Below are positions 27,377-59,135 of a stretch of DNA of 64,000 bases, piece after piece. The DNA comes from Lachnospiraceae bacterium. Its GTDB lineage: Bacteria; Bacillota; Clostridia; Lachnospirales; Lachnospiraceae. Location: NCBI GenBank assembly GCA_017387565.1, contig JAFOEY010000025.1:17472-81471 (forward strand), written 5' to 3'. The notes below the pieces were generated by a model. That model saw only the letters and a list, made by a program, of their open reading frames with translations. It had not been told where the DNA came from and searched no databases. The position numbers and the translations under genes were made by a program. How positions within the stretch are numbered: the first letter of the stretch is position 1; each line of letters opens with the position of its first letter.

Positions 27377-28033
27377 TTACAACAAAATACAACTCAAAAT
27401 AAATATGATACTATCATGAAGACCATGAGCCAATGAAACAGAAATAATCGTGCAATCTTTCCACTTTGTCTTAGCAACGGAATAGATCAAACCGATAATA
27501 AAAATCCACGTCACATTTATAAAATTCCTTGTTAATGGAAAATGCATAAACCCAAATAATATGGAAGTAACTATACAGACAACTATTTTGTTTCTAATCA
27601 GTTTTTCTAATTGCTGTTGAAAGTACCCACGAAAAATAAATTCTTCAACCGGTCCCACGAACAAAAGCAAAAAAATAATCTGACCAACTACATTTTGCTG
27701 TTTTACCGATAACACATACTCTTTATTGACCCCACATAGCAATGGAAGCAATACAAAGATACTGATTGTAATCATCAATAGAAATCCGCTCGCGCAAATC
27801 TGCTTTCCCAAATTCTTTGCGGAATATCCCAGTTCCATAAAAATTTTCTTCTTATTCTTATAAAAAACAAATACTGTCCCTGCCATCAGAAAATATGTAA
27901 ACATTTTGCCAAACAGTCGTCCAATGCTATTTTCTGTCAGCATCTGAAATAATAATGGAACTGCTGTCAACCCTAACAAAACAGAATATACAATCACCAA
28001 TTTCATTGTTAATAATAATATTTCCTTTTTCAT
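27377..28033 (-). CDS. CPBP-family intramembrane protease
   Basis: A 218-residue membrane protein with about six segments and the CPBP (Abi/CAAX protease) motifs PVEEFIFRGYFQQQL (about 124-138), FGFMHFP (about 163-169) and a later His in SLAHGLHDS. These are the glutamates and histidines of the active site. Family members process prenylated or peptide substrates or give bacteriocin self-immunity; the substrate here is unknown. Confidence 0.85.
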   Translation of the reverse strand: MKKEILLLTMKLVIVYSVLLGLTAVPLLFQMLTENSIGRLFGKMFTYFLMAGTVFVFYKNKKKIFMELGYSAKNLGKQICASGFLLMITISIFVLLPLLCGVNKEYVLSVKQQNVVGQIIFLLLFVGPVEEFIFRGYFQQQLEKLIRNKIVVCIVTSILFGFMHFPLTRNFINVTWIFIIGLIYSVAKTKWKDCTIISVSLAHGLHDSIIFILSCILL

Positions 28034-50019: not shown

Positions 50020-51351
50020 ATTCTGTTTAAGAGAAAAATATATAATCAATTACTACAATGGAAAGCGGAATCAAACGGGAAAACAGCTTTACTGGTAGAA
50101 GGAGCAAGGCGTGTCGGTAAATCCACAATAGTTGAAGAATTTGTACGAAACGAATACGAGAGTTTCATCATTGTTGATTTCTATAGAGCTTCATCTGCCA
50201 CAAAAAAACTATTTGATGATTTGTCTGATATAAATTATTTATTTCTTCAGTTGCAGCTTACTTATCAAACAAGTTTAAAAGAAAGAAAATCTTGTATTGT
50301 ATTTGATGAGGTTCAGTTATGCCCTAAAGCCAGACAGGCGATTAAAGCATTGGTTAATGATGGAAGATATGATTATATCGAGACAGGTTCATTAATTTCT
50401 ATACACAAAAATGTCAAAGATATTTTAATTCCCAGCGAAGAAAGAAAACTTCATATGTATCCCATGGACTATGAGGAGTTTAGATGGGCACTCGGGGATG
50501 AAGTGTCAGTTAATATGCTAAGACAATTTTATGATGAGAAAAAGCCACTAGGGCAGGCAGCAAATCGTAAAATGTTGAGAGATTTTAGATTATACATGCT
50601 TGTTGGAGGAATGCCACAGGCAGTGGAAACATATATCTCAACCAATGATTTTAGCAAGGTTGATAGCATAAAAAGAGATATCTTTACTTTGTATGAGGAT
50701 GATTTTAGAAAAATAGATCCCACAGGCAAGCTTTCCGCTTTATTTGATGCAATTCCCGCTCAGCTTATGGGGAATGCATCACGATATCAGGTTTCAAGTG
50801 TTTTGGCAGGAAGTAGATCAGGAGATATTTTGGAGCAGATTACAGAACTTAAGGATTCTGGGACCGTACTTGTAGCATATCATGCGAATGATCCTGGTCC
50901 GGGGATGGCTCAAACTAAAGATTTGGAAAGATTTAAACTCTTTACAACGGATATAGGTCTATTTGTAACACTTGCATTTAAGGATAAAAGTTTTACTGAA
51001 AACGATATTTATACCCGATTACTTAGTGATAAGCTGCAGGCTAATTTGGGATATGTTTATGAAAATGTAATTGCCCAAACACTGGCAACTAATGGACACA
51101 ATTTGTATTACCACACTTTCTTGAATGAGAAATCAAAACATAATTACGAAATTGACTTTTTAATTGCTGAAAAAAATAAGATATGTCCAATAGAAGTTAA
51201 AAGTTCCGGTTATAAGACACATCCATCTATAAATGCATTTACTGAAAAATTTTCATCAAGAATTATTCGAAAGATTATGATTTATACAAAAGACTATATG
51301 CGAGATGGAGACCTTGAATACTTACCGGTTCATATGGCGCAATTTTTGTAA
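50020..51351 (+). CDS. DUF4143 ATPase with non-ATG start
   Basis: A 443-residue AAA-like ATPase. The Walker A GARRVGKST lies at about 26-34 (DNA near 50105), VFDEVQLCP is the Walker B region, and a DUF4143 domain follows with EIDFLIAEKNKICPIEVKSS, a PD-(D/E)XK-like core. The first in-frame ATG (50221) lies after the Walker A, so translation must start earlier. The only options before the in-frame TAA at 49993 are ATT 50020 or CTG 50023, both 3' of the G8 tract. Function unknown; often encoded near defence and TA genes. Confidence 0.8.
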   Translation: MLFKRKIYNQLLQWKAESNGKTALLVEGARRVGKSTIVEEFVRNEYESFIIVDFYRASSATKKLFDDLSDINYLFLQLQLTYQTSLKERKSCIVFDEVQLCPKARQAIKALVNDGRYDYIETGSLISIHKNVKDILIPSEERKLHMYPMDYEEFRWALGDEVSVNMLRQFYDEKKPLGQAANRKMLRDFRLYMLVGGMPQAVETYISTNDFSKVDSIKRDIFTLYEDDFRKIDPTGKLSALFDAIPAQLMGNASRYQVSSVLAGSRSGDILEQITELKDSGTVLVAYHANDPGPGMAQTKDLERFKLFTTDIGLFVTLAFKDKSFTENDIYTRLLSDKLQANLGYVYENVIAQTLATNGHNLYYHTFLNEKSKHNYEIDFLIAEKNKICPIEVKSSGYKTHPSINAFTEKFSSRIIRKIMIYTKDYMRDGDLEYLPVHMAQFL

Positions 51352-51766: not shown

Positions 51767-52663
51767 TTAACACTCCATTTTTCTCTGCTTTATACAAATG
51801 ACGACTGCCATAATAATCATAGGGATCATACTGATGATACCAATATATGCCGGACCAAAGATTGCCATATCTGCATATTCAGATTTAGAAAGATAAGCAA
51901 ATATGGTAAATGCATTGACTGCACCATGCATCAGTGACGGAAGCCAGATAGTTTCTGTCTTTTCATACACATAATCAAACAAAATACCCATCATAACAGT
52001 ACTGATACAGAATACGATCGGTCCGAGTACCGGTGCGCCAATATATTCTTTACCATATTCATAGCCCGCAAAAATCATAATCGGCCAGTGCCAAGCACCC
52101 CAGATTGTACCACCCACAATACGTCCCTTGGTGACACCAAATTTTTCCTTCAAATATGGATACATAGCACCTCTCCAACCGACCTCTTCTCCTAAAGCCA
52201 CAAACATATTAATAAATGGTCCATATGTAAGCGCCTGAATTGTAGAGATCAATAGATACATCGGTATCGTTAATCCCTGTGCTTCTAACTGTTGAAGCGC
52301 ACCAGCCTCTTCTAAAATGCCGCGCAAGGTCAAAAATTCTGAATCATATGCATCCGGAAAAAATACAAAAAACAAAACACCACCAACAATGCTTAGTAAA
52401 GCCGGCATCCAAAGCGCAAAAAATACATATCGAATTTTGTTTTTAAGATGCGGCACCCATCCCATGCCTTTTAGTGGAATTCTTGCTATGAGTACTCCCA
52501 GGAAAGGCATAAACATGGTAATTATCAAATTAACTTTAAATACCATTTGATTTCCTTTGTTGCTATAAATACTTGCAATAATTTCTAAAATCCAGGCCAG
52601 ACCAAATGCCACTATCATATATATCACAAATTGTTTTCTACTCATTTTTGTTTTTTCCATCAT
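51767..52663 (-). CDS. CPBP-family intramembrane protease
   Basis: A 298-residue membrane protein with about eight segments. The active-site motifs are ALGEEVGWRGAMYPYL (about 166-181) and GAWHWPI (about 202-208). These are the long CPBP type. The ATG overlaps the stop of a short cysteine-rich frame in ATGA. Substrate unknown. Confidence 0.88.
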   Translation of the reverse strand: MMEKTKMSRKQFVIYMIVAFGLAWILEIIASIYSNKGNQMVFKVNLIITMFMPFLGVLIARIPLKGMGWVPHLKNKIRYVFFALWMPALLSIVGGVLFFVFFPDAYDSEFLTLRGILEEAGALQQLEAQGLTIPMYLLISTIQALTYGPFINMFVALGEEVGWRGAMYPYLKEKFGVTKGRIVGGTIWGAWHWPIMIFAGYEYGKEYIGAPVLGPIVFCISTVMMGILFDYVYEKTETIWLPSLMHGAVNAFTIFAYLSKSEYADMAIFGPAYIGIISMIPMIIMAVVICIKQRKMEC

Positions 52664-52770
52664 GAATTAACCCCTTTCCTGTATACTTCAAGACTCCAAA
52701 TTTTTCTCTTACAATTAGGACAAGATAACTTTCTACTTTTGTATTTGTTGCATATGTTCTCAATTACTCC
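52660..52770 (-). CDS. Small cysteine-pair frame coupled to the CPBP gene
   Basis: An open frame ends with TGA that overlaps the CPBP start. It reads NICNKYKSRKLSCPNCKRKI then WSLEVYRKGVNS. CPNC looks like half of a zinc ribbon. An AAGGAG site lies at its 5' end, but no ATG, GTG or TTG is in frame, so it may be a decayed gene or use ATT. Confidence 0.35.
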   Translation of the reverse strand, partial: GVIENICNKYKSRKLSCPNCKRKIWSLEVYRKGVNS

Positions 52771-52828
52771 TTAATGATATTTTCCATTTTCTATCATATA
52801 ATTGTCTACTTTGAAAGACTAATGTTAT

Positions 52829-53062
52829 TTAATTTGGCATTTGTTCGTTTAGTTCATTCAAAAGGTAGATAGTCTTAAATATCTTATTACATTTTTTGCA
52901 TTGCCAGTCACAATTACTCTTCTTTGCTTTTTTGTGCAATAATTCAAGTTCATTGCCGCATATAGGACAATTCGTTTTTTCCAAATTCCATAGTTTTTTC
53001 AAAAATTTAATTACTTCATTTCGGGATTCCATTTTCAGTTCTTTTAATACAACTCTTTCCAT
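52829..53062 (-). CDS. Small zinc-ribbon protein
   Basis: A 77-residue basic protein with CPICGNEL and CKKCNKIF, a two-knuckle zinc ribbon. The ATG at 53062 follows AGGTGAAATGT. Function unknown. Confidence 0.65.
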   Translation of the reverse strand: MERVVLKELKMESRNEVIKFLKKLWNLEKTNCPICGNELELLHKKAKKSNCDWQCKKCNKIFKTIYLLNELNEQMPN

Positions 53063-53088
53063 ACATTTCACCTATAACTTATTTTTCG

Positions 53089-53142
53089 TTTTGTATGTGA
53101 TTACAATTCCAATAACAGAAAACCAAAAGCAAGCGGTGCGCA
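53089..53142 (-). pseudogene. Duplicated XRE 3' fragment
   Basis: TTTTGTATGTGATTACAATT and the bases that follow match the 3' end of the XRE gene (47029-47083), coding for SVIGIVITYK. It shows that pieces of the 45-48 kb region have been copied more than once into 51-53 kb. Confidence 0.7.
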
Positions 53143-53259
53143 GAAAGTCCAGAAATCAGCCTTGGCTTTCAAGATATTTGTTAAGCAATATACTACCATA
53201 TCCTTTTCCAATGTAAACAGGCAGAAAATATATGGAAACAACAGCCTAAAAGATCAAAG

Positions 53260-54024
53260 TTATCTTGAATTCATTTCTCCAACTAACAACATTACAATCA
53301 TCATAATCATAATACAAATAATCGGTAAAATCCCTGTATGTAATGTGAGCATCAAAACAAATGCAATAACCCATAAAATCATCCCGGTTAGCATTCCGGC
53401 ACTATATGCCTTCTGAGCCCCTTTAGCAGCTTTCATCAGTTCAGCTTCATCCATACAGTTAATCCATTTCTTCCGAAAATGTATATCAAAAATATTTCCC
53501 TGTTTTTCCGGATTTATCTTTTTTTCCAAATTTACAATTAGGGCATTTATGATTAAAAATAATGCCATGCCAAACATAAAACAAATTTCAGCAATAATTA
53601 CCCCTGTAAGAGATAATTCTTTCCCTGATATTTCAACCGCTTCTCTACATAAAACAACAATAGGGAAAGCGCAAAGACTAAATAAATACATTACTGCACT
53701 GATAATCATTGATTTACTCAGCGCTAACTCTACATGATCTATTTCTGATTCAAATGTTTCATCATCCATTTTTTCTAATTTGATATATTTTTTCTTTGCT
53801 GAAATATAAATAAAAAAACTTATTCCATATGTAATGAATGTTAATACGACAAAAAAAATGGAAGTCGGGATATAAATATTTTCTGCAACAAGGCACCAAT
53901 TAATACCATCTATTGTATCCTGTATATTTCTCGCAAATTTTCCCACAAAAAAGCCTGCTACAAGACAAAAAATCATCAATACAGCAAACGTAAAATATAT
54001 CTTAATATTCTGCTTTTTATTCAT
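53260..54024 (-). CDS. DUF3169-like membrane protein
   Basis: A 254-residue membrane protein with about six segments, resembling DUF3169 proteins that are encoded after small XRE regulators. The ATG at 54024 overlaps the XRE stop by eight bases and follows GAGGGAG. Likely a membrane partner of the regulator; role unknown. Confidence 0.78.
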   Translation of the reverse strand: MNKKQNIKIYFTFAVLMIFCLVAGFFVGKFARNIQDTIDGINWCLVAENIYIPTSIFFVVLTFITYGISFFIYISAKKKYIKLEKMDDETFESEIDHVELALSKSMIISAVMYLFSLCAFPIVVLCREAVEISGKELSLTGVIIAEICFMFGMALFLIINALIVNLEKKINPEKQGNIFDIHFRKKWINCMDEAELMKAAKGAQKAYSAGMLTGMILWVIAFVLMLTLHTGILPIICIMIMMIVMLLVGEMNSR

Positions 54025-54241
54025 CTTTACTATCTCCCTCATCTGAAATATATTCAAAAATATCTTCAACCTTTACTCCACAGGTACTTGCAATTTTAAG
54101 AGCAAGTGTAACGGACGGGCTGTAATCTCCGCGTTCAATTTGACTTATTGTTTGTCTGCTTGTTCCTACTAATGCCCCCATTTCCTGTTGATTTACGCCC
54201 AGCTTAGCCCTGAACTCTTTCAAGTGATTATATAATGGCAT
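54017..54241 (-). CDS. Small XRE-family regulator
   Basis: A 74-residue Cro/CI-type protein: LGVNQQEMGALVGTSRQTIS then QIERGDYSPSVTLALKIAS. This is the YozG/XRE short form. It is second in a three-gene operon. The palindromes at 55063-55121 and the related site at 56078 are good candidate targets. Confidence 0.92.
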   Translation of the reverse strand: MPLYNHLKEFRAKLGVNQQEMGALVGTSRQTISQIERGDYSPSVTLALKIASTCGVKVEDIFEYISDEGDSKDE

Positions 54242-54246
54242 TCTTA

Positions 54247-55020
54247 CTATTCCTCATCTTTCTTAACCTGTTGAGATTCATCATTCTTTTGCTTCTTGAA
54301 TGCTTGCTTCTTTGCACTACTATAATAATTTGTTCCATAGGCCATACCTATGGACATTCCAATGCACATTCCAATGCACATTCCGGTTGGACTATTGTCA
54401 AACATTACTCCAAACATCATTCCAAGCGCCATTCCAAGACACATTCCGATTCCTATAGCCGACTCGCTTGTTTTGCCAATTGTTTTATCTGCAATAATAT
54501 TTTCTTCCCAAATAATTACTTTTACACCAAGATTATTATAGGCTGCCGCCTCCTTTAACATCTCTAACAAATCCTTCATAATTATTGTTTCTTTCGATTT
54601 CAAATCTTCGCTTAAGTAAAGGGACTCTAAAACATAGGCATTTGCAGTCATTGCCTTTTCACGTTCTCTTTCTTTTCCTTTTTTCGTTCTAATTTGATAT
54701 TTGGCATCAAATTCTATAGCCTTGTTCATTATCGTTGTCCCCATCTCATCTATCTGGTTTTGTTTATCCTGTCGCTCATCTTTCTTCTCATTTTCAAGTT
54801 CAAAATCTGACGCCAAATGCTTTTCATATTTAATAACCACAACACCACATACTTCTTTCTTACGGGAAATGAAATATACTCTACCATTATCAGAAAGAAC
54901 TTTTTCTATCTGAATTTTTAACTTATTTCTTGCAACTTTTGCTTCTATCTCAGGTGACAATATAAACTTATCCTTCTGAATCTTTTTTAATGAAACATTG
55001 CTATAATCATATCCTCTCAT
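54247..55020 (-). CDS. GNAT-like protein with glycine-zipper membrane hairpin
   Basis: A 257-residue protein. Residues 1-165 look like a GNAT-type fold with a charged insertion: DNGRVYFISRKKEVCGVVVI, then NAYVLESLYLSED and YNNLGVKVIIWEE. Residues 187-232 are a membrane hairpin of GxxxG repeats: GIGMCLGMALGMMFG and GMCIGMCIGMSIGMAYG. The acetyltransferase likeness is tentative. It is first in an operon with XRE and DUF3169, five bases before the XRE start. Confidence 0.6.
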   Translation of the reverse strand: MRGYDYSNVSLKKIQKDKFILSPEIEAKVARNKLKIQIEKVLSDNGRVYFISRKKEVCGVVVIKYEKHLASDFELENEKKDERQDKQNQIDEMGTTIMNKAIEFDAKYQIRTKKGKEREREKAMTANAYVLESLYLSEDLKSKETIIMKDLLEMLKEAAAYNNLGVKVIIWEENIIADKTIGKTSESAIGIGMCLGMALGMMFGVMFDNSPTGMCIGMCIGMSIGMAYGTNYYSSAKKQAFKKQKNDESQQVKKDEE

Positions 55021-55062
55021 ATCTCACATAGTCCCTTCTTTTGACAACTTTTCTTTATATAA

Positions 55063-55121
55063 TGACAACTATCCTTGTCATTTTGTATTTGAAATATACA
55101 CCATGACAACTATCCTTGTCA
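55063..55121 (-). promoter_or_regulatory. Double operator upstream of the glycine-zipper operon
   Basis: TGACAACTATCCTTGTCA occurs identically at 55063-55080 and 55104-55121, 41 bp apart; each is an inverted repeat TGACAA/TTGTCA. A minus-strand TTGACA (55117-55122), 18-bp spacer and TATATT follow. Confidence 0.8.
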
Positions 55122-55139
55122 ATAATTTCTTGTCAAAAA

Positions 55140-55205
55140 TTATGATACCAGAGTCAAAAAGTCATACTTTTCATGCTCGCATGAAAAAGTATGACTTTGA
55201 AACCC
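55140..55205. repeat. Dispersed repeat family 2, copy C
   Basis: The most complete copy: TATGATACCAGAGTCAA, then GTCATACTTTTCATGC and ATGAAAAAGTATGAC forming a strong hairpin. It lies after the CPBP gene (55220) and may be its terminator. Confidence 0.8.
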
Positions 55206-55219
55206 GTCTTCTTATATTA

Positions 55220-56044
55220 TCAGTTATTAGAGACTTCCTTTTTTCTCAGCAGAAAAACTGCATACAGCAGCAAAGGAATAAAAAGGCAAAGATTTATAAC
55301 GTATGCCCTTGCACTTGGAGTGTTATTATTGGCTATCTCTTCTGTTGTCATTTGCCGGACAGCAAAATCACCAAAGCCGGCTGCCATGTCATATAAACTA
55401 TGAAGAATGCAACACCACAGAAGGTTTAAGTTGGTTCTAAGCAGAAGTGCTGAGAAGAATACGCCTATAATACAAGCATAACCTACTTGCGTTAATACAG
55501 CCGCAGCACCGACTCCCGTACGGAAATTTTTTAAGTGAATTAACCCAAATAGAATACTGGACATAAAAACAGCACAAATGGTTCTGTTATGAGTATTCCC
55601 AAAGAGTTCTGTGAATTGCCGTAACAGCACTCCGCGGAATAGAATCTCCTCATAAAATCCAATGGCTAAGCTCTCTAAAATCATCAGCAGAACCATCCCC
55701 GGATTTGCCTGAGCCAAGCCGTCAATTTCTAAATTGGCTACGATATAGACAAAGAACATCCAACTGAGACCAAAGTATGTTTTATCAATCCTATATGTGA
55801 ATATCCGCATATCACTAAGATGAAATAGTATTGGAAGTAGCAAAGCCAGTCCGAATAATCTGACGATTATCCCCATCCCATATTTTGTTCCCAAATCATT
55901 GGAATCCAGTTTTATCCCTGCATGAGCAAATCCCCATGAAATTCCTTTTGGAAGAATATCCAATGTAAAAATCACACCTACGAACACAACCAATATGAAT
56001 ATAAGAATTGTTTTTTGCACTGACACTGTATCTCTATGTACCAT
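55220..56044 (-). CDS. CPBP-family intramembrane protease
   Basis: A 274-residue membrane protein with about eight segments and the motifs AIGFYEEILFRGVLLRQF (about 146-163) and FGLIHLKNF. The ATG at 56044 lies after GGAGGTG. A site at 56078-56092 shares the core of the operators of the next operon, suggesting joint control. Confidence 0.88.
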   Translation of the reverse strand: MVHRDTVSVQKTILIFILVVFVGVIFTLDILPKGISWGFAHAGIKLDSNDLGTKYGMGIIVRLFGLALLLPILFHLSDMRIFTYRIDKTYFGLSWMFFVYIVANLEIDGLAQANPGMVLLMILESLAIGFYEEILFRGVLLRQFTELFGNTHNRTICAVFMSSILFGLIHLKNFRTGVGAAAVLTQVGYACIIGVFFSALLLRTNLNLLWCCILHSLYDMAAGFGDFAVRQMTTEEIANNNTPSARAYVINLCLFIPLLLYAVFLLRKKEVSNN

Positions 56045-56077
56045 ATCACAACGCACCTCCAAGAATAATAGTATCAA

Positions 56078-56092
56078 AACAACTATCCTGTT
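56078..56092 (-). promoter_or_regulatory. Operator-like site upstream of the CPBP gene
   Basis: AACAACTATCCTGTT shares ACAACTATCCT with the double operator at 55063-55121 and keeps the inverted-repeat form (AACA/TGTT). Confidence 0.6.
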
Positions 56093-56127
56093 GCAAGAAT
56101 CATCTCTACTGCATTATCTGTGCAAAT

Positions 56128-56880
56128 CTACCATTCCATCTTTGCCAACCATTGGTTGACTTTTTCCTCTCGCTGCTTAAACGAATCTTTTGGACAATCT
56201 TCCAGCATCAATTCTCCTTGGAGTTGTCCGTCTAGCAAATACATAATCCGTCCGCAGCGACTTGCCATCCTGCTGTCATGAGTTACCATCAAGATAGTAG
56301 TTCCTTCACGATTCAATGACATAAGTGCATTCATCACTTCCTCTGAGGCACCTTTATTTAATGCCCCTGTGGGTTCATCAGCAAAAATAATCTCAGGATG
56401 ATTTATCATACTTCTGCAAATACAAGCCCTCTGTAGCTGACCGCCCGAAACTTCAGTTATTTTTCTTTTCTCCAAGCCGGAAATCGAAAGCTTTTCCATC
56501 AGACGCGCCGCTTCATCTATCAGCTCCCTTTTTTCCGTTCTTTCTTTTTTCTTTTCCTTGTTTGCCTGTATGGCAGGAAGCAAAATATTATCCAGAATAT
56601 TCAGGTTTTCCATCATATTCATCTGTTGAAAAACGAAACCAATCTGATGAAGCCGTAATTTTGCTTTATCGTTCTCAGATAATGCTGTGATTTCCTGTTC
56701 TTTTAGCCATACTTTACCTTTGGTAGGTTGATCCATACCGGATATGTTATATAATAATGTGGACTTTCCTGAGCCTGACGGTCCCATAATTGCTACCATT
56801 TCTCCTTGATTGACACCAACCGAAACATCCTTTATAATCTCGTCTTTACAAAGTTTTTCTACCCGTAAAATTTTATCCAT
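56128..56880 (-). CDS. ABC transporter ATP-binding protein, MacB/LolD type
   Basis: A 250-residue ATPase with Walker A GPSGSGKST, signature VSGGQLQRA and Walker B IIFADEPTGALN. It is cotranscribed with the large FtsX-type permease, starting six bases after its stop. The ATG at 56880 follows AAAGGAAT. Typical of lipoprotein, peptide or drug exporters. Confidence 0.95.
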   Translation of the reverse strand: MDKILRVEKLCKDEIIKDVSVGVNQGEMVAIMGPSGSGKSTLLYNISGMDQPTKGKVWLKEQEITALSENDKAKLRLHQIGFVFQQMNMMENLNILDNILLPAIQANKEKKKERTEKRELIDEAARLMEKLSISGLEKRKITEVSGGQLQRACICRSMINHPEIIFADEPTGALNKGASEEVMNALMSLNREGTTILMVTHDSRMASRCGRIMYLLDGQLQGELMLEDCPKDSFKQREEKVNQWLAKMEW

Positions 56881-56885
56881 ACAAT

Positions 56886-59135
56886 TTATTCCTTTCTCAT
56901 GCAGCACTCATATGCTTTGATTTTTTTCACTTCCAAAGTGCCAAAACTTACAGCCGCAGCTGCTGTCACCATCAAAATTATGATAATTAAAATCACCCAC
57001 TCCCAACGAATCACAAAGTGAAATCCATATGCTCCAAGGGATTTTAATATCTGTCCGCAGATACTTTCACCAAAGATGTTACCTAATAGCACTCCCATAA
57101 GCGCGCCCACTGTTATCGGAACAAATCCATGAATGAAATAATCTGTTCTTATACTGACATTGTTAAACCCCAAAGCTTTTTGAAGAGAAATGCAGTATCG
57201 CTTTTTTTCAATCATCAATCTCATAAAAAGCATTACCACAACCATAATAATCAGTAAAGCTATACCCATTGCCACAAGCTTTGCCATCTCAATCTGCTTT
57301 ATCGTAGGGCCATATGTTCCCTGTACGTAACTCGCAATATCTACAATGTCTACCCCTGGGCAAGTGTATTTTTTCATCCACTGCTCTGTATGCACATTAT
57401 CCTTTAAGGATACATACAAAATGCTCCACATCACCCGGTCATCTGTATTCCCACCGGACGAAAGATTGCTCATTTTTGCTGTTTTTCCACCATTTGTAAT
57501 ATCCGAATAAATACCGCACACCACAGCAATTTTTGATTTTCCGGAATATATCAACTCCAATTTATCACCGACATGAAGTCCCAAATCCTGTGCCTGCAAA
57601 ACGGAAAGTGCAATTTCTCCCTCTTTTTCCGGGTGGCTTCCCTCCGCATACTTAACAGGGAACACGGAATGGTCTCCTGTTTCCACAATGAGATTTACCT
57701 GTGATCCATCCGCTAAAATGACAGGGCAGGATACTGTTTTTAACGCCACATACTTTAAAACATCGGAATCATAACTTAATTCCTCCAACAGATTCTCTGT
57801 TATCTCCCCGATATTTTCAGATTGTCTCACGTCCATCCGAATGGCGGCATCTCCGATACCCATATAGCTAACAAATTGCGACGAAGAAATTGTACTGTAT
57901 AGATTCTGTGGAATCAGCGTTAAAACCATACAAGCCGCCACTACAAGACCAATTATCACATACTGACTTCTCTCCTTATTTTTCCCTTGTGTCTGTACCG
58001 GAAATAATGCCTCCAGTGCCGACATCTTCTCAATTTTTTTTAAAACATGCCTTATAAAAAAAAGTATTACTGCCTGAATCAATATACAAGTCAGAATGGT
58101 AATGGCAACAGAAAACAAGCCCTTATTTGACACACCATATAACTCTCTTAACTTTTCTGAAAGTGGTCTCTCTAATATCCCGGCGCCCCAAAAGCCCAAC
58201 AATGCACCAACGAACGAAAATAATATATATTTGGATAAATATAAAAACCGGATCTGTTTGTTTTCAATTCCCAAAGCTTTTAACATTCCCACTTCTCTTC
58301 TGTCCTGTTCCACGCCAAGGGCAGTTATAAAACGAATACAAAGAAGAGAAATCAACAACACCCCAATACCAACCAGCAAAATCACCAAAATCATAATTCC
58401 GTCTGATAAGGCATTCATCATTCGAATCAATGGTTTCGTAATAGCCGGGCCGTTCGCATCCATCCCGGCACTACCATAATCTGCCGCAAATGAATCTATA
58501 TCCGTCTTCTCCTTTAAAAGAAATTCTATTAAATATTCTTCCTCTCCCAGTTTTTTTATCCGGTTGTAGTCTTCTTTACAGACTAAAAAACGTTTGGAGG
58601 AGGCCATCATAGAACTCATCTGTGAATCTCTGATAAAACCCGCAACAATTAATTCTTCACTACCAATCTGCATTTTGTCACCAATATTCAGTTCATACAA
58701 AGAGCGATAACACACCGGCACATAAACTTCTCCCTCCTCTACCACAGGACAGACATTGTTCATATCCAGCAAAAAATCAAATCCATCACTTTGCATACAT
58801 AGTCCATTGTCCTGGGTACTATCTGCAAGACTCCTGTTTCCAAGTACCACGGAACTGTTTTCCAAATTTAAGAAAGGGGATACCTGCCATTTTTCAACCT
58901 CAGCATGTTCCCTGGCAAACACTTTTATTTTCTCCGTTTGAATATCACCCGCATGCATCTGCAGGTAATCCGGTGTTACAGCCTTCTCCATCAGGTCATC
59001 CACACAACCCAGCAAACCGACAAGCAAAACTGCTGCCAGCGAAATAAAAAGTGACGAAGCCGCCATAAAAATAACCGTAGAGAACGACAACAGCTTATGA
59101 TTCCTTATATCATTCCATAATAATCTTCCTATCAT
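56886..59135 (-). CDS. FtsX-like ABC permease
   Basis: A 749-residue permease with two FtsX domains (membrane segments at about 15-40, 250-380 and 390-410, then 615-740) and two large extracellular regions. It overlaps the MFS gene by four bases and is followed by its ATPase. Likely an antimicrobial-peptide or drug exporter of the MacB/BceB class. Confidence 0.93.
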   Translation of the reverse strand: MIGRLLWNDIRNHKLLSFSTVIFMAASSLFISLAAVLLVGLLGCVDDLMEKAVTPDYLQMHAGDIQTEKIKVFAREHAEVEKWQVSPFLNLENSSVVLGNRSLADSTQDNGLCMQSDGFDFLLDMNNVCPVVEEGEVYVPVCYRSLYELNIGDKMQIGSEELIVAGFIRDSQMSSMMASSKRFLVCKEDYNRIKKLGEEEYLIEFLLKEKTDIDSFAADYGSAGMDANGPAITKPLIRMMNALSDGIMILVILLVGIGVLLISLLCIRFITALGVEQDRREVGMLKALGIENKQIRFLYLSKYILFSFVGALLGFWGAGILERPLSEKLRELYGVSNKGLFSVAITILTCILIQAVILFFIRHVLKKIEKMSALEALFPVQTQGKNKERSQYVIIGLVVAACMVLTLIPQNLYSTISSSQFVSYMGIGDAAIRMDVRQSENIGEITENLLEELSYDSDVLKYVALKTVSCPVILADGSQVNLIVETGDHSVFPVKYAEGSHPEKEGEIALSVLQAQDLGLHVGDKLELIYSGKSKIAVVCGIYSDITNGGKTAKMSNLSSGGNTDDRVMWSILYVSLKDNVHTEQWMKKYTCPGVDIVDIASYVQGTYGPTIKQIEMAKLVAMGIALLIIMVVVMLFMRLMIEKKRYCISLQKALGFNNVSIRTDYFIHGFVPITVGALMGVLLGNIFGESICGQILKSLGAYGFHFVIRWEWVILIIIILMVTAAAAVSFGTLEVKKIKAYECCMRKE

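What the first reader, a model, noticed from the sequence alone, without database searches (positions are those of the whole stretch)
53260..56092. Possible shared regulon of a glycine-zipper protein and an intramembrane protease
TGACAACTATCCTTGTCA occurs twice before the GNAT/glycine-zipper-XRE-DUF3169 operon, and its core recurs before the CPBP gene. A GxxxG membrane hairpin on a GNAT-like domain together with a CAAX-type protease suggests a bacteriocin-like or membrane-remodelling system not known to me.
Basis: partly seen in the sequence, partly recalled or inferred. Interest (0 to 1): 0.7.

Follow-up and report, generated by a model that had tools for sequence, protein, structure and literature searches.

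The report
Membrane-stress switch with pseudo-acetyltransferase cargo
This stretch holds a small repressor, its tandem DNA docking sites and a membrane sensor, of the kind that in Staphylococcus responds to blocked protein secretion, and in related bacteria the same docking sites repeatedly sit in front of membrane-embedded proteases, which may point to the kind of protease still missing from that stress response.

Summary
The two TGACAACTATCCTTGTCA copies are very probably operators: they overlap a promoter (TTGACA-18-TATATT) before 257-aa protein, XRE and DUF3169 genes. Exact tandem TGACAA-N6-TTGTCA occurs in 40 of 397 family genomes (reversed control 0) and in 21 of 27 DUF3169 genomes; in 130 of 133 loci with XRE it overlaps a -35/-10 pair. 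XRE-DUF3169 is the AyrR-AyrA arrangement, which in S. aureus senses uncleaved preproteins (PMC5727409). The third 'core' before CPBP is not an operator: spacer 6 of 6, arms 6 of 12, score -26.7 against 10.8 to 29. CPBP is not shown to be in this regulon here. Elsewhere membrane proteases are enriched under these operators (CPBP motif 9 of 88 cargo genes against 6 of 646 others; membrane HExxH 5 of 88 against 0 of 646), beside ABC-2 exporters and signal peptidase I; three targets lie in trans. Yet 68 of 154 operons show no cargo. The 257-aa protein is rare (3 full-length in 397 genomes, all in this slot): a GNAT-like domain without acetyl-CoA motif, plus membrane hairpin. No support for a bacteriocin role.

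The parts
55104..55121 (-). operator 1 (TGACAAGGATAGTTGTCA on the minus strand); its left arm with the preceding T makes the -35 TTGACA
55063..55080 (-). operator 2, identical, 41 nt downstream (commonest spacing elsewhere is 33)
55093..55122 (-). sigma-70-type promoter TTGACA-18-TATATT overlapped by operator 1, -10 lying between the operators
54247..55020 (-). 257-aa protein: GNAT-like N-terminal domain without the [QR]xxGx[GA] motif, then a glycine-zipper membrane hairpin (helices from about residue 183 in the model)
   Evidence: (no Pfam family at its cut-off)
54017..54241 (-). XRE/Cro-CI repressor, 74 aa (AyrR-like; best solved relative CylR2)
53260..54024 (-). DUF3169 membrane protein (AyrA-like) with the DEAE motif; start at 54024 chosen by eye from a ribosome-binding site, Pfam scan done on 53260-54033
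55158..55198 (-). 14-bp perfect inverted repeat between CPBP and the operators, followed on the minus strand by TTTTT; terminator-like by eye, but not in the terminator scan's list
   Evidence: (I8)
55220..56044 (-). CPBP (PF02517) gene with EEILFR, FGLIH and HSLYD; start chosen by eye; neighbour, not shown to be in the regulon
56080..56089 (+). CAACTATCCT, the 'third core'; judged not an operator

Best explanation
The finding is an AyrR-AyrA-type switch. The 74-aa XRE protein binds two TGACAA-N6-TTGTCA operators that cover the -35 box and the region just after the -10 of its own promoter, and so represses the operon 257 aa - XRE - DUF3169 (operator, promoter and gene order are shown from sequence; binding is inferred). 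DUF3169 is the membrane sensor that, on membrane or secretion stress such as uncleaved preproteins, stops the XRE protein from repressing (reported for S. aureus AyrA by others; inferred here). The released operon makes an effector. In the window the effector slot holds a GNAT-fold protein that lacks the acetyl-CoA motif and carries a membrane hairpin; in other species the same slot or a neighbouring one holds CPBP, M50 or DUF3267 membrane proteases, an ABC-2 exporter, or signal peptidase I, and often nothing. The effector most likely helps to clear or extract stuck membrane-anchored proteins, the 257-aa protein probably as a membrane adaptor rather than an acetyltransferase (inferred). The window's CPBP gene is a neighbour, probably with its own transcription unit.
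For: Tandem exact operators in 40 of 397 family genomes, reversed control 0. 27 of 200 family genomes carry DUF3169 over cut-off; 21 of these have the exact tandem and 26 at least one exact operator. Of 22 tandem genomes whose handles place them in the 200-genome set, 21 have DUF3169 over cut-off and the 22nd (G152) a sub-cut-off piece next to it. 130 of 133 loci with an XRE gene and exact tandem (window included) have TTGACA-(16-18)-(-10-like) overlapping operator 1; shuffled spacers 12%. Phylum-wide, of 8 other DUF3169 loci over cut-off, 6 have an exact operator in the stretch and 5 of these also an XRE gene. In trans: tandem operator before ABC (L104), ABC (L139) and M50-like (L145) genes, in genomes that hold XRE-DUF3169 with the same operators elsewhere. 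XRE best PDB match CylR2, E 5.5e-12. DEAE motif present, a motif named for AyrA in PMC5727409 (passages). Cargo enrichment with family checks.
Against: No binding, expression or stress data for any of these species. The window operon lacks an ayrBC exporter. DUF3169 here is divergent (130 bits against up to 295 in relatives). In 2 of 8 phylum-wide loci (L259, L261) I found neither operator nor XRE, and in L263 no XRE. 68 of 154 operons contain only XRE/DUF3169 by my gene calls, and 53 of 99 cargo genes of at least 150 aa carry none of my labels, so a single theme may be over-read. The role of the 257-aa protein rests on slot and fold only, with a middling model (pLDDT 66, pTM 0.52, 8 sequences; fold matches have TM about 0.33 and large rmsd). 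The profiles were built partly from in-operon genes; the motif count avoids this but is cruder.
Confidence: 0.6

Rival explanations
1. The XRE-DUF3169 switch is real but responds to something other than secretion stress (for instance an antimicrobial peptide or a lipid change), as CylR1/CylR2 responds to a peptide; the cargo is general membrane defence.
For: [quoted passage not shown] CPBP proteins and ABC-2 exporters also serve peptide defence (recalled).
Against: DUF3169 is the AyrA family, whose inducing signal was traced to stable preproteins; a signal peptidase I gene follows DUF3169 in L108, and a frame similar to it lies further down the operon of L094.
Confidence: 0.25
2. The 257-aa GNAT-like protein and the XRE protein are a toxin-antitoxin pair.
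For: Listed fold matches include AtaT, KacT and TacT (that these are GNAT toxins is recalled), and rank 1 is titled 'bacterial toxin'; the XRE protein has sub-cut-off hits to antitoxin models.
Against: No [QR]xxGx[GA] acetyl-CoA motif in 9 of 10 family members, the one match (L187) near the N-terminus; membrane hairpin; a relative was found in only 7 of 120 tandem-operator loci; the operon includes DUF3169.
Confidence: 0.06
3. A bacteriocin-like or membrane-remodelling system.
For: Glycine-zipper hairpin (by eye); CPBP proteins are known as bacteriocin immunity proteins (recalled).
Against: No bacteriocin family among the nine neighbouring proteins scanned with Pfam; the 3 full-length members in 397 family genomes all lie in the switch operon. 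No dedicated precursor search was made.
Confidence: 0.04
4. The window's CPBP is co-regulated after all, through a half-site at 56080.
For: Ten shared letters placed between a plausible TTGCAA and TACTAT (by eye); CPBP is recurrent cargo elsewhere; a second CPBP gene (51767-52663) lies on the other side of the operon.
Against: Score -26.7, arms 6 of 12; no motif by the 74% identical paralogue; ACAACTATCCT count not clearly above control genome-wide; CPBP follows the ABC gene on the same strand with a gap of about 83 nt.
Confidence: 0.1

Closest known systems
AyrR-AyrA (cro/cI and DUF3169) of the ayrRABC operon, Staphylococcus aureus (PMC5727409, passages; PMC5013292, passages and section 11)
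   Same: Small Cro/CI repressor followed by a DUF3169 membrane protein with the D-E(A/G)-E motif; repressor acts upstream of its own gene; ABC exporters are frequent cargo in relatives of the window operon.
   Different: No ayrBC in the window operon; a GNAT-like hairpin protein takes the first slot; membrane proteases are recurrent cargo in relatives. No direct sequence comparison with the S. aureus proteins was made, and the S. aureus operator sequence was not read.
CylR1-CylR2 of Enterococcus faecalis (PMC3709268, passages)
   Same: XRE repressor of similar size, best PDB relative; paired with a membrane protein needed for induction.
   Different: CylR1 has three predicted membrane helices, the window DUF3169 six hydrophobic stretches; no lanthipeptide genes among the neighbours scanned.
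CPBP/Rce1-like intramembrane endopeptidases (PF02517; ABC fusion NF041647)
   Same: Adjacent gene in the window; recurrent cargo under the operators elsewhere.
   Different: The window copy is not under the operators.
GNAT acetyltransferases, among them AtaT, KacT and TacT
   Same: Predicted fold of the N-terminal domain (weak to moderate).
   Different: Acetyl-CoA motif absent; membrane hairpin added.

Membership tests
AyrRA-type switch | small Cro/CI (XRE) repressor gene next to DUF3169 | tested here: met
   PF01381 58.3 bits and PF11368 130.2 bits, adjacent genes
AyrRA-type switch | D-E(A/G)-E motif in the loop between membrane helices 4 and 5 of DUF3169 | tested here: met
   DEAE at residues 195-198 of the translated frame; six hydrophobic stretches in a crude count; the place in the loop was not modelled
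AyrRA-type switch | repressor site upstream of its own operon | tested here: inconclusive
   conserved tandem operator over the promoter; binding itself cannot be tested here
AyrRA-type switch | ayrBC ABC exporter in the operon | tested here: not met
   absent in the window operon; PMC5727409 itself says that ayrRA occurs without ayrBC in other species, so this defines ayrRABC rather than ayrRA
AyrRA-type switch | induction by uncleaved preproteins | not testable with these tools
   needs an experiment
AyrRA-type switch | direct sequence relation to S. aureus AyrR/AyrA | not tested
   only the shared Pfam family of DUF3169 and the Cro/CI type
CylR1-CylR2 | three-helix membrane partner and cytolysin-type operon | tested here: not met
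   partner is DUF3169 with six hydrophobic stretches
GNAT acetyltransferase | GNAT fold | tested here: inconclusive
   most of the 50 listed Foldseek matches are titled N-acetyltransferases; rank 1 titled only 'bacterial toxin', E 3.6e-4, TM 0.33/0.45; model pLDDT 66
GNAT acetyltransferase | [QR]xxGx[GA] acetyl-CoA motif (recalled definition) | tested here: not met
   absent in the window protein and in 8 of 9 relatives
type II toxin-antitoxin | toxicity neutralised by the partner | not testable with these tools
   needs an experiment
bacteriocin system | precursor peptide and dedicated export or immunity gene | tested here: inconclusive
   none among nine neighbours scanned with Pfam; no dedicated precursor search made

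The most novel reading that the evidence does not exclude
AyrRA-type switches of Bacillota share one operator code, and their regulon is a modular membrane-clearance kit in which ABC-2 exporters, CPBP and metallo membrane proteases, signal peptidase I and a membrane-anchored pseudo-GNAT replace one another. The membrane-embedded protease postulated but not identified for the S. aureus signal-peptidase bypass would then be of the CPBP or M50/DUF3267 kind, the exporter-protease fusion NF041647 being the joined form.
Probability: 0.33. Interest if true: 0.78.

Novelty: new variant of a known kind. Interest (0 to 1): 0.56.

Why it matters
[quoted passage not shown] The sequences here give a precise operator, a promoter layout and a list of outputs that can be tested in many species. 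PMC5013292 concludes that a protease, perhaps embedded in the membrane, is linked to the exporter but leaves the mechanism to be determined (section 11 read); the enrichment of membrane proteases under the same operators gives direct candidates. I found no paper that joins these in the searches I made, seen as listings unless said otherwise: DUF3169 (5 papers; passages of two), ayrRABC (1 paper), AyrA/AyrR/signal peptidase (8 papers), arylomycin with ABC transporter, signal peptidase, Cro (537 papers, 20 listed), CPBP with XRE/operon/intramembrane protease (5 papers), CPBP with secretion stress and related terms (11 papers, 10 listed), the operator arms with repressor terms (0 papers). The library holds open-licence papers only.

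Tried and rejected
Third site as operator: rejected by weight matrix and paralogue. Further operators in the own genome: I fetched 26 stretches that cover all matches with up to 1 mismatch outside the window; in 22 the site lies inside a frame of at least 100 aa, and the four others are a variant tandem at G000:C10 (L284) and three weaker single sites (L289, L292, L306) with no evident link to the theme. The same-genus matches to the 257-aa protein (L002-L004) are only short glycine-zipper proteins. No phage or plasmid record matches the 257-aa protein at E 1e-5. No Rfam match at gathering score in 52000-57000.

Limits of the counts. The DUF3169 alignment A2 was too variable for a genome-contig scan, so the operator pattern was scanned instead. 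In 17 of the 120 no XRE or DUF3169 gene was recognised near the operators, in some because the stretch ends there. Three of these (Actinoplanes L158, a beta-proteobacterium L167, Phycisphaeraceae L208) have no DUF3169 in their genomes and look like chance matches; L233, L236 and L251 look alike but were not searched. All these were left in the counts. Removed before those counts: 12 loci redundant between the two collections and L117, which has no operator. Gene calls are by longest open frame and contain spurious frames, mainly in the outside set, which inflates the contrast; among proteins with at least 4 hydrophobic stretches CPBP is still 9 of 31 against 6 of 124 and HExxH 3 of 31 against 0 of 124. 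Several related species share loci, so Fisher p values treat related loci as independent. Two operator-led genes, CPBP L215 and the 257-aa relative L209, lie in genomes of 1.9 and 1.6 Mb where no DUF3169 was found; unexplained, perhaps incomplete assemblies.

Full report
What is there. On the minus strand of 53260-56092 lie, in order of transcription, a CPBP gene (PF02517; 55220-56044), a 14-bp inverted repeat (55158-55198), two identical 18-bp palindromes (55104-55121 and 55063-55080), a 257-aa gene (54247-55020), a 74-aa XRE gene (54017-54241) and a DUF3169 gene (53260-54024). The palindrome is TGACAA-GGATAG-TTGTCA on the coding strand. It occurs twice exactly and not elsewhere in the window within three mismatches.

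Is it an operator? I asked where DUF3169 occurs in the family. Of 200 genomes searched, 27 have it over Pfam's cut-off. Their flanks showed an XRE gene and one or more TGACAA-N6-TTGTCA palindromes upstream in nearly all (two of the 27 could not be read by that script). Turned round, two exact palindromes 8-30 nt apart occur in 40 of 397 family genomes, while the reversed control pattern occurs in none. Of the 27 DUF3169 genomes, 21 have the exact tandem; of the other six, five have one exact copy and one (G050) neither an operator nor an XRE gene that my search recognised. Of 22 tandem genomes whose handles place them in the 200-genome set (one search does not list every handle), 21 have DUF3169 over cut-off; the 22nd, G152, has a short sub-cut-off piece beside the operators. 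In 154 loci, 133 have an XRE gene and an exact tandem; in 130 of these the base before operator 1 makes TTGACA and a -10-like hexamer lies 16-18 nt further on (17 in 110), between the operators; with shuffled spacers this happens in 12%. The window has TTGACA-18-TATATT. This is the layout of a repressor that blocks RNA polymerase. Phylum-wide, 9 of 398 genomes have DUF3169 over cut-off, the window's own among them; of the 8 others, 6 have an exact operator in the stretch and 5 of those an XRE gene as well, 2 have neither.

The third site. The weight matrix from 115 sites (93 exact) of 44 other loci has nearly all its information in the arms and little in the centre. In register, the site before CPBP matches all 6 centre letters and 6 of 12 arm letters and scores -26.7, a level that 3.3% of window positions reach. 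The best score anywhere in the CPBP upstream region is -14.1, in another register. The 115 sites score 10.8 to 29 and the two window operators 27.3. ACAACTATCCT occurs five times in the genome, two of them the operators, against three for the reversed control. A paralogue of this CPBP (74% identity, G000:C21) has nothing like it. I therefore reject the third site. CPBP lies about 83 nt after an ABC ATPase gene on the same strand and may belong to that ABC/MFS group.

What the switch is. XRE plus DUF3169 is the arrangement of AyrR-AyrA in S. aureus. In the passages read, AyrR represses its own operon, AyrA (DUF3169, six predicted helices, D-E(A/G)-E motif) relays the signal for derepression, and the signal is a set of uncleaved preproteins with stable signal peptides; the authors note ayrRA without ayrBC in other species and suggest a two-component signalling system. 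The window DUF3169 carries DEAE. I did not compare it with the S. aureus sequence. The XRE protein's best solved relative is CylR2, whose partner CylR1 is also a suspected membrane protein, with three predicted helices.

What the switch controls. For proteins of at least 200 aa, the CPBP motif with at least 4 hydrophobic stretches is in 9 of 88 cargo genes and 6 of 646 others (Fisher p 9.5e-6); HExxH with at least 3 hydrophobic stretches in 5 of 88 and 0 of 646 (p 2.2e-5). With profiles, and at least 150 aa, CPBP is 13 of 99 against 6 of 787 and ABC ATPases (by motif) 18 of 99 against 9 of 787 (profiles built partly from in-operon genes, so biased). Of the six outside CPBP hits two are the window's own, one (L096) is divergent from the operators and one (L074) is a fusion downstream of DUF3169. 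Against this, 68 of 154 operons hold only XRE/DUF3169 and 53 of the 99 cargo genes bear none of my labels. Pfam finds PF02517 in all eleven in-operon or adjacent CPBPs given to it; M50 over cut-off in L109 and below it in L145 and L106; DUF3267 ('putative zincin peptidase') in L164 and L183; ABC-2 permeases in L107 and L139; and signal peptidase I (PF10502, 160.5 bits) directly after DUF3169 in L108. A frame similar to that signal peptidase lies after the ABC genes of L094 (not checked with Pfam). In L177 the operon contains an ABC permease-CPBP fusion (NF041647, 543.9 bits over a cut-off of 435, cut by the end of the stretch); L074 has one about 1.5 kb downstream of DUF3169.

Action at a distance. 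Tandem operators also precede genes with no XRE nearby: an ABC ATPase-permease pair in G228 (L104), another in Amphibacillus cookii (L139) and an M50-like gene (L145). In all three genomes a DUF3169 locus with XRE and the same operators exists on another contig. A CPBP (L215) and a 257-aa relative (L209, stretch ends just beyond the operators) stand behind tandem operators in genomes where no DUF3169 was found.

The 257-aa protein. It matches no Pfam family at its cut-off. A profile of three members finds three full-length members in 397 family genomes, each between operator and XRE; the matches in 12 other genomes cover only parts of the C-terminal portion, from model position 94 or later. 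Seven more relatives appear in the 120 stretches. They share an N-terminal part (GRVYGIY..KE..GVYIF) and a C-terminal hairpin; by eye the glycine zipper is strong in some and absent in L082. The AlphaFold model (8 sequences, pLDDT 66, pTM 0.52) matches mostly N-acetyltransferases (best E 3.6e-4, TM 0.33 by query, large rmsd). The acetyl-CoA motif [QR]xxGx[GA] is absent in 9 of 10 members, and the one match is near the N-terminus. I read it as a membrane-anchored pseudo-acetyltransferase. Its slot is the one taken by CPBP (L113, L146, L189, L193, L243) or DUF3267 (L164, L183) in other species, so I infer an effector in the same clearance task.

Judgement. Shown by sequence: operator, promoter overlap, linkage to XRE-DUF3169, cargo enrichment in a capped sample, trans targets. 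Inferred: binding, sensing of membrane or secretion stress, the job of each cargo. Known already: the AyrRA pair and one output (ayrBC). New as far as my searches reach: the operator code across Bacillota, the membrane-protease outputs, the link to the fusion and the 257-aa family. The open point it touches is the possibly membrane-embedded protease named in PMC5013292.

Noticed in passing
G000:C10:37905-37952 (L284:1506-1553): A variant tandem TGCCAAGTTTTATTGTCA x2, 30 nt apart, with TTGACA-17-TATAAT read by eye on the opposite strand, before a 105-aa (or 111-aa) membrane-like protein; looks like a sister switch with a different operator. No XRE frame was seen on that strand in the 3.1 kb fetched.
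   Followed up: partly
window 27377-28033, 51767-52663, 55220-56044: Three of the genome's 11 PF02517 (CPBP) matches lie in this window; two flank the XRE-DUF3169 operon.
   Followed up: partly
L108:5090-5659 and L094:9590-10138: Signal peptidase I gene directly after DUF3169 under tandem operators (L108, Pfam) and a similar frame after the ABC genes of L094: the most direct link to secretion stress.
   Followed up: partly
L177:1-1758 and L074:2121-4190: ABC permease-CPBP fusion proteins (NF041647) in or downstream of AyrRA-type operons.
   Followed up: partly
L215 and L209: Tandem operators before a CPBP gene and before a relative of the 257-aa gene in genomes where no DUF3169 was found.
   Followed up: partly
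L250:7064-7399: A DUF6442 membrane protein (PF20040) in the slot before XRE, possibly another sensor or effector.
   Followed up: no
L002, L003, L004: Short glycine-zipper proteins of 105-111 aa in the genus, 3 of 3 next to a NUDIX-like gene (label by eye); they match only the hairpin part of the 257-aa protein.
   Followed up: no
window 50221-51351: A 376-aa frame that looks like a DUF4143-type AAA protein without its P-loop start (label recalled, not searched).
   Followed up: no
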